Below, piece by piece: positions 22,680-25,978 of a stretch of DNA of 64,000 nucleotides (position 1 is the first letter of the stretch; each line of letters begins with the position of its first letter). The translations under genes were made by a program, and so were the position numbers. Source of the stretch: Babesia bovis T2Bo (Eukaryota; Apicomplexa; Aconoidasida; Piroplasmida; Babesiidae); contig NW_026261571.1 in assembly GCF_000165395.2 (NCBI RefSeq), forward strand, positions 954,501 through 1,018,500, read 5' to 3'. The notes beneath the pieces are model-generated. The model did not search any database, was not told the origin of the DNA, and saw nothing but the letters and a program-made list of their open reading frames with translations.

Positions 22680-23976
22680 ATGGCATTTTCAAGGTCCATT
22701 CCTAAACGATCGCAAGGCATTGCTTATTGGGAGATAACGGGAATATGTGATGAAGTGGCTTCAAAACTCGATAAGATACCATCCAATACAACAGCACTAA
22801 ATAATCCTACCTCTCCCGAACTACCATCCGAAGAACAGATTTTGGACCATGTAATTCGTTTGGCAAACCCCCAATTGGAGCTTGATGTTACAGGTTTGGA
22901 CCTGAAAGGCGAAATAGATATATCCAAGTTCAAGAACCTAGAAATCTGCTCCGTAACAGGTGGATATACAAATATCTTGTACAAGGTGACTAACCGTGAT
23001 AACGGTAATATTGTAGCTGTTCGTATTTTCGGTCGTCAAACGGAACGTTTTATCGACCGTTCCCATGAGCGTATAATCCAGAACCACCTTTGTCTGCAGG
23101 GTTTCGCGAAGCATGTCTACGCCCGGTTCAACGGTGGTCAGATTGAAGAGTGGCTGCCCGGCAATGTGGTATCGGACGATGACTTTTACAGCTTCAAGTA
23201 CACGGAGTTGATTGCTAAGCAGCTGTACAAGTTGCACGCAACACCTGGACAGCGCGACCTTTATGTGAAATTGTATCCACACCTAGCGAAGAACGGTGAG
23301 TTGAAGTTTGAGTCGCAGCTTTGGGCCAGTGTCTGGAAGTTCTATGACCTGTAAGTGTTTTGTTGTTTCTCATAATTTTACCAAGGTGCCTGGAGAACAT
23401 CCAACAGGTGGAACCAATCATCGGAGACAACTTCAACCTAAGAGATATCAGAAAAGTGAGTTAATGAATGAACCAATATATCTGTATGTAGCATATGGAA
23501 CAAATTCACGACTACTGTGATGATGCCATGTCTCCTGTCGTGCTTTGCCACGGTGATTTATCAAAAGGCAACATTGTGATCGACTCCTCAGGTAACCGAT
23601 TTCATGCAATAATCCATTTTCCATAGGCAATGTTATATTTTTAGACTACGAATACTCATGCTTCATGGAGCGTGGATTTGATATAGCCGCTCACTTCTCG
23701 GAGTTTGCCGCTTATGAAACAGATTCAAGCAGAATTCCATCTTCTGCGGTACAACATGAATTCATACGCCACTACCTTGGTGAAAATGCTACGGAAAAGA
23801 TGATAGAAGATTTGTACAAGGAAGTCCAGCCATTCCTACTGGTTCCAAATATATATTGGGGTCTTTGGGCACTTTTGCAATGCCTGTATTCCTCAATCCA
23901 CACTGATTTCGCCCACTACTCTATCAACAGGATTAGGCGTTTCTTGGATGATGTAAAAAACTATACGAAACAGTAG
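22680..23976 (+). CDS. Ethanolamine/choline kinase, paralogue 1
   Basis: Phosphorylates ethanolamine or choline, the first step of the Kennedy pathway to phosphatidylethanolamine or phosphatidylcholine. Exons 22680..23350, 23386..23455, 23492..23591 and 23627..23976 (396 aa). Motifs: GGYTNILYKV and VAVRIFGRQTERFIDR (N-lobe nucleotide site), HGDLSKGNI (catalytic HxD....N) and FLDYEYSCFMERGFDIAAHF (choline kinase motif with the second metal Asp). A 490-bp tract covering most of exons 1-2 and intron 1 is identical to the paralogue downstream, while the first 96 residues and the last two exons differ. The FGRQTERFIDR sequence favours ethanolamine kinase over choline kinase, but substrate choice is not certain. 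Confidence 0.88.
22968..23457 (+). repeat. 490-bp identical tract, copy 1
   Basis: Every base matches 24973..25462 (constant offset 2005), including the 35-nt intron. Identity begins and ends abruptly: the base before the tract (T versus G) and the base after (G versus A) already differ, and flanking exons and introns are clearly diverged. Such sharp borders with an identical intron are the mark of recent gene conversion, or of an assembly artefact. Confidence 0.95.
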
Positions 23977-24735
23977 AAAGCGCTATTGACTAATAACCTA
24001 CAACAATGCATTTTAAAACAAATTATATCACATCGTTTACATGAGTGCTTAACTAGACAGCGTTATATACGTTTAATGACCACATATTAAGCGTTAGATA
24101 AACATGAGAATGCTATTAGTAATACTATCTACTGTGACATATCAAAATAAGTCATTTAAGATTTGAAGATTATGTGATCCATACACCCAGCATAACATAC
24201 TCAAGGGCGATGTATGGGATACCGACGGTACGTATCTGCCACACATATCATCAATACCTTACATACACACGTGTGTCGCACAGAAGAAGCACCTTTAAGT
24301 GTTTAAATAAGAGATCGCAACGCAAATGGTTCTTCAATTATAATATATAATAAAATACAATGTGTATTACACCAATTCTCGTGACATTTGCGATAGTAAT
24401 ACCATATTACGGTGATATATAACCATCCAATAACCTTAATGTCTATGTCTTACTAACGTACGTGCCACTGTAAGAGACCAAAGCAATAATTGCACATCAC
24501 CCCAGTGCATCTTTTAAATAACACTGTATAACAAGGAAGATAAATAACAGATAGTATTTTAATATGCTAGATAGCATTCAAAGCCGATATCTTTTGTAAG
24601 CGTTCGACTAATTAGCGTTGGACTCTAACCCACCACAATACACGCAACACATAAAAACACATCAATTTGCTTTACCTGTCAAATTAAACATTCACACCCG
24701 AATTCGAACTTCATCAATATTGATTAATATATGAG
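23977..24735. other. Intergenic between the two kinase paralogues
   Basis: 759 bp of AT-rich sequence. It carries the 3' UTR of paralogue 1 and the promoter of paralogue 2. I found no similarity to the region upstream of paralogue 1, no pseudogene and no RNA gene. Confidence 0.35.
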
Positions 24736-25978
24736 ATGGTGGATTCTAAGGCGGTAAAAAACATTGCAGAATTCCTGGGAGCCACGCAGCCTACATTTCC
24801 ACAAAGTGAGAAAACGGAACTTGAACCATTAAGCCATGAGGAAATAATTGCACATGCAGTAAGACTAGGACATAAACAACTAGGAATAAATGTGGAAGGA
24901 TTAGATCTAAGTGGGGATTTGGATATTAATCAATTCAGCTACCTGGAGAAGGTACTCATCGTTGGAGGATGGACAAATATCTTGTACAAGGTGACTAACC
25001 GTGATAACGGTAATATTGTAGCTGTTCGTATTTTCGGTCGTCAAACGGAACGTTTTATCGACCGTTCCCATGAGCGTATAATCCAGAACCACCTTTGTCT
25101 GCAGGGTTTCGCGAAGCATGTCTACGCCCGGTTCAACGGTGGTCAGATTGAAGAGTGGCTGCCCGGCAATGTGGTATCGGACGATGACTTTTACAGCTTC
25201 AAGTACACGGAGTTGATTGCTAAGCAGCTGTACAAGTTGCACGCAACACCTGGACAGCGCGACCTTTATGTGAAATTGTATCCACACCTAGCGAAGAACG
25301 GTGAGTTGAAGTTTGAGTCGCAGCTTTGGGCCAGTGTCTGGAAGTTCTATGACCTGTAAGTGTTTTGTTGTTTCTCATAATTTTACCAAGGTGCCTGGAG
25401 AACATCCAACAGGTGGAACCAATCATCGGAGACAACTTCAACCTAAGAGATATCAGAAAAGTAGGTTTCTACTCACTGTTAGCAAACATTATAGGTGATC
25501 AAGAGGTTGGAAGTTGTTTGTGCTGCAAAGAAATCGCCTGTTGTGTTAACACACTGTGATTTGTTGAACGGCAACGTTTTAGTTAGCGAAAATGAAGGTA
25601 CGTCCGTCGTGTTTGTTGTTAACATCCGCAGATCATGTCATTTTCCTTGATTACGAATACTCATGCTTCATGGAGCGTGGATTCGATATAGCAAACCATT
25701 TCATCGAATACTGCGGTGTCGAATGCAATTGGGATAGAATACCTAACGAAGAGGAACAGCGCAGATTCATCAAATACTATATAGGTGAAAATGCTACGGA
25801 AAAGGCAATTGAAAAGCTATATAATGAAATACAACCCTTCTTCATGGCCGCCAATATATTTTGGGGACTTTGGGGGTTGCTACAGTGCATCTATTCAACG
25901 CATGACATCGATTTTAAACGCTACGCAAACTTCCGTATAGAACGAGCTATCAACGATCACAGATGGATGCTGTTATAA
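24736..25978 (+). CDS. Ethanolamine/choline kinase, paralogue 2
   Basis: Tandem partner of the preceding gene, same strand. Exons 24736..25355, 25391..25460, 25495..25597 and 25632..25978 (379 aa). Intron positions match paralogue 1 exactly. Motifs: GGWTNILYKV, the same FGRQTERFIDR block, HCDLLNGNVLV (catalytic HxD....N; the middle residue is Cys here and Gly in paralogue 1) and FLDYEYSCFMERGFDIANHF. The divergent C-lobe (EYCGVECNWDRIPNEEEQRRFIKYY) is closer to canonical ethanolamine kinases than that of paralogue 1. Both copies keep all key residues and look functional. Sharing the N-lobe but not the C-lobe suggests different substrates or regulation. Confidence 0.88.
24973..25462 (+). repeat. 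490-bp identical tract, copy 2
   Basis: Partner of 22968..23457. It runs from inside the GG(Y/W)TN codon block, through the first intron, to the donor GT of the second intron. Two shorter identical patches follow at the same offset (25652..25683 and 25784..25804), inside otherwise diverged exon 4. Confidence 0.95.

What the first reader, a model, noticed from the sequence alone, without database searches (positions are those of the whole stretch)
22968..25462. 490-bp perfectly identical tract inside otherwise diverged tandem kinase paralogues
22968..23457 equals 24973..25462 at every base, including a 35-nt intron, while the N-terminal coding regions, later introns and C-lobes are well diverged. 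Borders are sharp to the base. An intron is free to drift, so identity there means recent gene conversion, not selection on protein. The tract makes the nucleotide-binding N-lobe common to both enzymes while catalytic and substrate segments stay distinct, a natural domain-level homogenisation. The tract also looks GC-richer than its flanks, as expected for a conversion hotspot.
Basis: partly seen in the sequence, partly recalled or inferred. Interest (0 to 1): 0.8.

Follow-up and report, generated by a model that had tools for sequence, protein, structure and literature searches.

The report
Repeatedly copied half of paired kinases
Two neighbouring lipid-making enzyme genes of a cattle tick-fever parasite keep one half identical by copying it between them while the other half stays different, and protein comparisons indicate that the same has happened separately in related species.

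Summary
Confirmed. Window 22968-23457 equals 24973-25462 at 490/490 bases, with sharp borders. The tract lies inside two adjacent four-exon choline/ethanolamine kinase genes (g1, g2) of Babesia bovis, the only PF01633 genes the genome search found. Synonymous divergence is saturated in both flanks and zero in the tract, whose intron is identical. Gene conversion, or an equivalent double exchange, is the best explanation.

The new part is recurrence. Protein pairs from B. ovis, B. ovata and B. bigemina show the same layout with other borders. In residues 59-247 each species' two paralogues share residues found in no other of 11 Babesia-like rows (bovis 19, ovis 17, ovata 4, bigemina 9 columns); in the C-lobe, none. 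The N-part groups paralogues by species in bovis, ovis and bigemina (ovata unresolved); same-species C-lobe pairs are rejected in all four. Columns separating g1 from g2 number 38 of 126 in the C-lobe, from the residue after the catalytic histidine on, but 1 of 208 in residues 59-266: X of the GGXTN loop.

My reading: repeated conversion homogenises the ATP-binding half while selection keeps the catalytic half, and perhaps X, apart. Donor, substrates and relatives' DNA remain open.

The parts
22680..23976 (+). g1: choline/ethanolamine kinase gene, exons 22680-23350, 23386-23455, 23492-23591, 23627-23976; 396 aa
   Evidence: spliced translation open throughout; PF01633 over cut-off in its pieces; 395 of 396 residues equal database protein P0001/S6BKW8
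24736..25978 (+). g2: tandem paralogue, exons 24736-25355, 25391-25460, 25495-25597, 25632-25978; 379 aa
   Evidence: spliced translation; PF01633; 379 of 379 residues equal P0003, annotated B. bovis T2Bo
22968..23457 (+). identical tract, copy 1 (codons 97-247 of g1 plus intron 1 and the GT of intron 2)
   Evidence: 490/490 identity, no extension; codon range
24973..25462 (+). identical tract, copy 2 (codons 80-230 of g2 plus intron 1 and the GT of intron 2)
23351..23385 (+). intron 1 of g1, 35 nt, identical to 25356-25390
25356..25390 (+). intron 1 of g2, 35 nt
22965..22967 (+). codon 96 of g1 (TAT, Tyr), X of GGXTN: last codon before the tract and the only type-diagnostic column in residues 59-266
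24970..24972 (+). codon 79 of g2 (TGG, Trp), X of GGXTN
23552..23554 (+). codon 268 of g1 (Gly of HGDLSKGN): first type-diagnostic residue of the C-lobe
25555..25557 (+). codon 251 of g2 (Cys of HCDLLNGN), counterpart of g1 Gly268
23647..23678 (+). 32-nt exact patch in exon 4 shared with 25652-25683; codon clustering not significant
   Evidence: exact match; shuffle p 0.11-0.13
23977..24735 (.). 759-bp spacer between the two genes; no similarity between the flanks of the two genes at the 2005-bp offset

Best explanation
An old tandem duplicate pair of ethanolamine/choline kinases in Babesia undergoes repeated ectopic gene conversion over the part coding for the ATP-binding half. In B. bovis the latest event copied at least about 490 bp (exon 1 from the GGXTN loop on, intron 1 and exon 2) between g1 and g2, recently enough to leave no difference. 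Similar events happened separately in B. ovis and B. bigemina and probably in B. ovata, with different ends. Conversions that overwrite the catalytic loop and substrate half do not persist, most likely because the two enzymes differ there in substrate or regulation and selection removes them. One residue at the tip of the nucleotide-binding loop also stays different. Shown: the tract, its intron and the saturated flanks in B. bovis; at protein level, the tree conflict in three species and species-private sharing in four. Inferred: gene conversion as the molecular event, selection as the reason the C-lobe is spared, and the functional difference between g1 and g2.
For: Identity 490/490 with an identical intron. 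dS 0 in the tract against saturation on both sides; 0 differences over about 95 synonymous and 29 intron sites gives a 95% upper bound near 0.024 per site. Paralogue identity by segment (P0001 used for g1): residues 98-171 bovis 74/74, ovis 72/74, ovata 72/74, bigemina 74/74; residues 268-396 68/128, 58/127, 58/125, 59/125. Trees (15 rows): N-tract pairs bovis (99/98), ovis (98/99) and bigemina (100/100) by species, and holding the four g1 rows together costs 259 log-likelihood units (p-AU 6e-72); in the C-lobe same-species pairs are rejected (p-AU 1.3e-5 bovis, 2e-7 ovis, 2e-18 ovata, 3e-51 bigemina). The groups were named after the alignment had been seen, so these p-values are not those of a blind test. 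Species-private residues shared by both paralogues in residues 59-247: bovis 19, ovis 17, ovata 4, bigemina 9 of 189; in residues 267-396: 0 in each of the four (11 rows). Two B. bigemina gene models both carry the same 14 residues at the intron 2 position, read here as a retained intron identical between paralogues. Third-position GC of tract codons is raised (amino-acid-stratified odds ratio 2.19, p 8.5e-5).
Against: Only proteins, no DNA, of the relatives could be read, so their introns and synonymous sites are untested. The B. ovata pair is not a clade in the N-tract tree (p-AU 0.099, not rejected). Donor direction is unresolved (tract matches B. ovis g1 at 10 and g2 at 7 of 27 informative sites, p 0.63). 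The tract intron has GC 0.29, no higher than the other introns of these genes (0.31-0.50), against a GC-bias signature. Residue X does not follow type outside the four species: B. caballi has Tyr with a g2-type C-lobe, B. gibsoni Leu with a g1-type C-lobe. The g1 and g2 groupings of the C-lobe tree are not starred (82/53 and 88/95). Selection on the C-lobe was not tested directly.
Confidence: 0.9

Rival explanations
1. Assembly artefact: reads of one copy were used to fill the other, so the identity is not biological.
For: A 490-bp exact repeat 2 kb apart is the kind of place where an assembler can err; no raw reads were available. The contig length (1,797,577) equals that of the contig given for the T2Bo protein P0003, so P0003 is probably the same record and no independent check.
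Against: Flanks on both sides are unalike and gene structure is intact in both copies. The same layout, with other borders, appears in the records of three other species. P0001, listed under taxid 5865, joins g1 ends with the tract; how that record was made was not seen.
Confidence: 0.04
2. Strong purifying selection on the N-lobe keeps both copies alike without exchange.
For: The N-lobe binds ATP and several residues are invariant. Between B. ovata and B. bigemina g1 the tract is slightly better conserved than the C-lobe (136/150 against 111/126).
Against: Synonymous sites and an intron are identical. Between B. bovis and B. ovis the tract is no better conserved than the C-lobe: g1 105/150 in residues 98-247 against 103/129 in 268-396, g2 103/150 against 89/127. 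Species-private shared residues are not expected this way, least of all in one half only.
Confidence: 0.01
3. Successive unequal crossovers (a chimeric third copy gained, then one copy lost) rather than non-crossover conversion.
For: Gives the same final layout; longer tandem near-identical copies exist about 110 kb away on the same contig.
Against: Needs two events per species with an internal tract each time; the searches returned one protein of each type in each of the four species, no third copy.
Confidence: 0.12
4. Conversion is mechanically confined to the N-part by a local initiation site, and the C-lobe is spared by its position, not by selection.
For: Tract codons are GC-richer at third positions than the flanks, as expected of a long-lived conversion site; residues 98-169 are homogenised in all four species (70-72 of 72).
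Against: Right borders differ between species (about residue 169 in B. ovis, 247 in B. bovis, 267 in B. ovata and B. bigemina), yet none passes residue 267. The tract intron shows no raised GC.
Confidence: 0.3

Closest known systems
Concerted evolution of tandem duplicates by ectopic gene conversion (general; e.g. tandem arrays of Trypanosoma brucei, PMC1855330, search listing with start of abstract seen)
   Same: Paralogues more alike within than between species; tandem arrangement.
   Different: Here only one internal part is homogenised and the rest stays paralogue-specific in the four species examined.
Segmental gene conversion of ves1 antigen genes in Babesia bovis (PMC6684078 and PMC4066756, passages seen)
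   Same: Same organism; ectopic copying of segments between paralogues, thought to be homologous recombination.
   Different: Large variant-antigen families in which copying creates diversity; here a two-gene metabolic enzyme pair in which copying removes it.
Plasmodium vivax ethanolamine kinase, PDB 2qg7
   Same: Best solved relative of g2 by sequence and by fold (E 2.7e-24, 32% identity), and of g1 exon 1 by sequence.
   Different: A single protein; Babesia has a tandem pair, of which g1 departs at the catalytic loop (Gly for Cys after the His, against the P. vinckei relative P0013).
PfRh2a/PfRh2b of Plasmodium falciparum (recalled, no call)
   Same: Neighbouring genes sharing a near-identical part with unique C-terminal parts.
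   Different: Invasion ligands, not enzymes; recalled only.

Membership tests
Ectopic gene conversion / concerted evolution | identity tract with sharp borders inside diverged paralogues, neutral sites included | tested here: met
   B. bovis only:
Ectopic gene conversion / concerted evolution | paralogues closer within species than orthologues between species, in the tract only | tested here: met
   protein level only; bovis, ovis and bigemina by tree and private residues, ovata by private residues but not as a clade
Ectopic gene conversion / concerted evolution | identifiable donor and recipient | tested here: inconclusive
   10 to 7, p 0.63
Ectopic gene conversion / concerted evolution | GC-biased repair signature | tested here: inconclusive
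   third positions raised; intron GC 0.29 not raised
Choline/ethanolamine kinase PF01633 | profile match over the curated cut-off | tested here: met
   (four of four pieces given, 72-110 bits against 29)
Choline/ethanolamine kinase PF01633 | HxDxxxxN catalytic loop and DxE metal motif (motifs recalled) | tested here: met
   HGDLSKGN / HCDLLNGN and DYEY in the two proteins
Ethanolamine kinase subgroup | closest to known ethanolamine kinases in sequence and fold | tested here: met
   2qg7 best hit of g2 by sequence and fold and of g1 exon 1 by sequence; the g1 C-lobe was not compared alone and the g1 model was not searched
Ethanolamine kinase subgroup | phosphorylates ethanolamine | not testable with these tools
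   needs an assay

The most novel reading that the evidence does not exclude
Babesia bovis has only this one ethanolamine-kinase-like pair and no separate choline kinase, and g1 has become the choline kinase through changes in its catalytic and substrate half. Recurrent conversion in four species acts as a natural domain-swap experiment: the only positions that resist homogenisation (residue X of GGXTN and the C-lobe from Gly/Cys268 on) are the ones that make the two enzymes different.
Probability: 0.3. Interest if true: 0.72.

Novelty: new member of a known kind. Interest (0 to 1): 0.58.

Why it matters
In the papers seen here gene conversion in Babesia figures as an engine of antigenic variation. 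This shows it acting repeatedly on an ordinary metabolic enzyme pair, and each time on the same half. Because each species is a separate trial, the residues that are not homogenised point to what makes the two enzymes different, so enzyme specificity becomes testable. It also warns that gene trees or drug-target comparisons based on the N-part of these kinases mislead.

Tried and rejected
Second conversion patch in exon 4: 32 identical nt, but clustering of identical codons among conserved residues is not significant (p 0.11-0.13); dropped. Donor direction: site votes and a tree of residues 170-267 gave no answer. A separate choline kinase: PF01633 finds 5 exon pieces, all in g1 and g2; PF01636 finds three places, one of them in g1 and two elsewhere, which by their reading frames look like a protein kinase of CK2 type and a RIO-type kinase (judged by eye, no family search run), so no third family member was found; the genome search is exon by exon and its counts are lower bounds. 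B. gibsoni P0009 with P0011: 59 of 62 residues identical over 98-159 with differing C-lobes, but P0011 bears no species name, so it is not counted as a fifth species; their C-lobe pairing is rejected (p-AU 0.004) and their N-tract pairing is not (p-AU 0.52).

Literature, 9 of 10 searches used: Babesia bovis with choline kinase 4 papers, 3 listed; Babesia, gene conversion, tandem, paralog 22, 20 listed; gene conversion with ethanolamine kinase 2; gene conversion, Apicompl, housekeeping, recurrent 2; T2Bo with PacBio assembly 0; Babesia choline and ethanolamine 4; rap-1 with gene conversion 8; concerted evolution terms 45, 20 listed; Babesia, gene conversion, kinase, tandem duplication, exon 1. 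No title or abstract opening listed describes this pair. Three papers were opened, passages only: PMC3505731, PMC6684078, PMC4066756. The library lacks most subscription journals, so prior description elsewhere is not excluded. A survey of the whole chromosome was cut to 200 kb.

Full report
What is there. The two 490-bp stretches are identical at every base and cannot be extended; the DNA search lists only these two places in the 8.23-Mb genome. They sit inside two four-exon genes on the + strand, 759 bp apart, with introns at matching places (34-36 nt). Both genes encode PF01633 choline/ethanolamine kinases. The g2 protein equals P0003, annotated Babesia bovis T2Bo, at 379 of 379 residues, and the g1 protein equals P0001 (B. 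bovis) at 395 of 396, the one difference lying inside the tract (Leu242Pro). The profile PF01633 finds five exon pieces, all in these two genes.

The tract against its flanks. Aligned codon by codon, the part before the tract keeps 30 of 72 amino acids and the part after it 75 of 148, with dS not computable (saturated) in both; among conserved degenerate residues 8 of 29 and 40 of 72 keep the same codon. The tract keeps 151 of 151 codons. With about 95 synonymous and 29 intron sites unchanged, divergence since the last exchange is at most about 0.024 per site. In the 200 kb fetched only ten exact direct repeats of 30 nt or more exist, of lengths 2669, 644, 490 and less, so chance is excluded.

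Where the tract lies in the enzyme. Predicted structures (g2 mean pLDDT 87.2; g1 81.6) and the codon range place it from the start of the second strand, just after the tip of the GGXTN loop, through the rest of the N-lobe, the hinge and the first helices of the C-lobe, ending inside the helix before the catalytic loop. Fold search with the g2 model gives P. vivax ethanolamine kinase 2qg7 first, then human choline kinases; the g1 model was not searched.

Recurrence. In the alignment and segment counts the four pairs are nearly identical over residues 98-171 (72-74 of 74). Further right they differ: B. bovis is homogenised to residue 247 (window copy), B. ovata and B. bigemina through residue 267 (20 of 20 in 248-267), B. 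ovis only to about 169. To the left, residues 59-88 are 30/30 identical in B. ovis, B. ovata and B. bigemina but 15/30 in B. bovis. From residue 268 on, paralogues of one species share only 58-68 of 125-128 residues.

Tests of independence. In the N-tract tree paralogues pair by species in B. bovis, B. ovis and B. bigemina (starred); the B. ovata pair does not, though it is not rejected (p-AU 0.099). In the C-lobe tree the rows group by type (the four g1 rows 82/53 and the g2 rows with B. caballi 88/95, neither starred; g1 rows with B. gibsoni 100/99, starred), and each same-species pairing of the four species is rejected (p-AU 1.3e-5 or less). I named these groups after seeing the alignment. 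Counting directly, columns in which both paralogues of a species share a residue absent from the other nine of 11 Babesia-like rows number 19, 17, 4 and 9 of 189 in residues 59-247 (bovis, ovis, ovata, bigemina), and 0 in residues 248-266 and 267-396 in each of the four. Columns that separate all four g1 from all four g2 number 1 of 208 in residues 59-266 and 38 of 126 in residues 267-396. B. bigemina gives a hint at intron level: both gene models carry the same 14 residues exactly where intron 2 lies.

The residue that stays different. The single separating column in residues 59-266 is residue 96, X of GGXTN: Tyr, Phe, Phe, Tyr in g1 and Trp, Cys, Leu, Leu in g2 (bovis, ovis, ovata, bigemina). 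In B. bigemina it is one of only two differences in residues 59-266; in B. ovata all five differences lie in residues 91-101; in B. ovis all five differences left of residue 170 lie in 89-96. In B. bovis it is the last codon before the tract. This may reflect selection, or simply where conversion ends; against a simple rule, B. caballi has Tyr with a g2-type C-lobe and B. gibsoni Leu with a g1-type one.

How it probably works. Ectopic repair between the neighbouring copies, probably by homologous recombination as proposed for ves genes (PMC6684078, passages), copies tracts of the N-part. Events reaching past residue 267 are not seen in any of the four species. There g1 has Gly268, Ser271 and Lys272 where g2, Theileria orientalis and the two Plasmodium-like rows have Cys, Leu and Asn or Ser; Theileria annulata has Ala, Leu, Ala. 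So g2 keeps the commoner, probably older form, and I infer that g1 has changed substrate or regulation. No other choline kinase was found, and the Theileria equi genome paper notes raised phosphatidylcholine in B. bovis and more choline/ethanolamine kinase genes in T. equi than in B. bovis (PMC3505731, passage); g1 is thus a candidate choline kinase. This is untested.

GC. Third-position GC is 0.596 in tract codons against 0.33-0.45 in the flanks; after stratifying by amino acid the odds ratio is 2.19 (p 8.5e-5), and none of 5898 overlapping windows in 12 reading frames of the window shows such a rise over its surroundings. The tract's intron, at 0.29, does not share it, so GC-biased conversion is suggested, not shown.

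Verdict. The finding is real and correctly read; it is an instance of a known process. Its recurrence on the same half of the gene in several species, with one loop residue spared, is the part worth following.

Noticed in passing
G000 contig C4:1088500-1094640 (L026/L027), outside the window: Tandem array with a 2999-bp period, 3142 bp at 99.9% identity between two copies plus a 143-bp piece of a third; a reading frame rich in Cys and His, CCCH-like by eye.
   Followed up: partly
G000 contig C4:1080669 and 1086032 (L026), outside the window: 822-bp repeat at 99.4% identity, 644 bp of it exact, 5363 bp apart, with unalike flanks: another possible conversion tract.
   Followed up: partly
window 23438 (codon 242 of g1): P0001 (S6BKW8, B. 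bovis) has Pro where the window has Leu; the only difference in 396 residues lies inside the tract, so it may be a change after conversion or a sequencing error.
   Followed up: no
P0005 and P0010 (B. bigemina gene models): Both carry the same 14-residue insert at the place of intron 2, probably a retained intron in the annotation.
   Followed up: partly
P0009 (B. gibsoni) and P0011 (unnamed): 59 of 62 residues identical over 98-159 with differing C-lobes; may be a fifth case if P0011 is from B. gibsoni or a close relative.
   Followed up: partly
window 23647-23678 and 25652-25683: 32-nt exact patch in exon 4 of both genes, an older conversion or shared codon use; not significant.
   Followed up: yes
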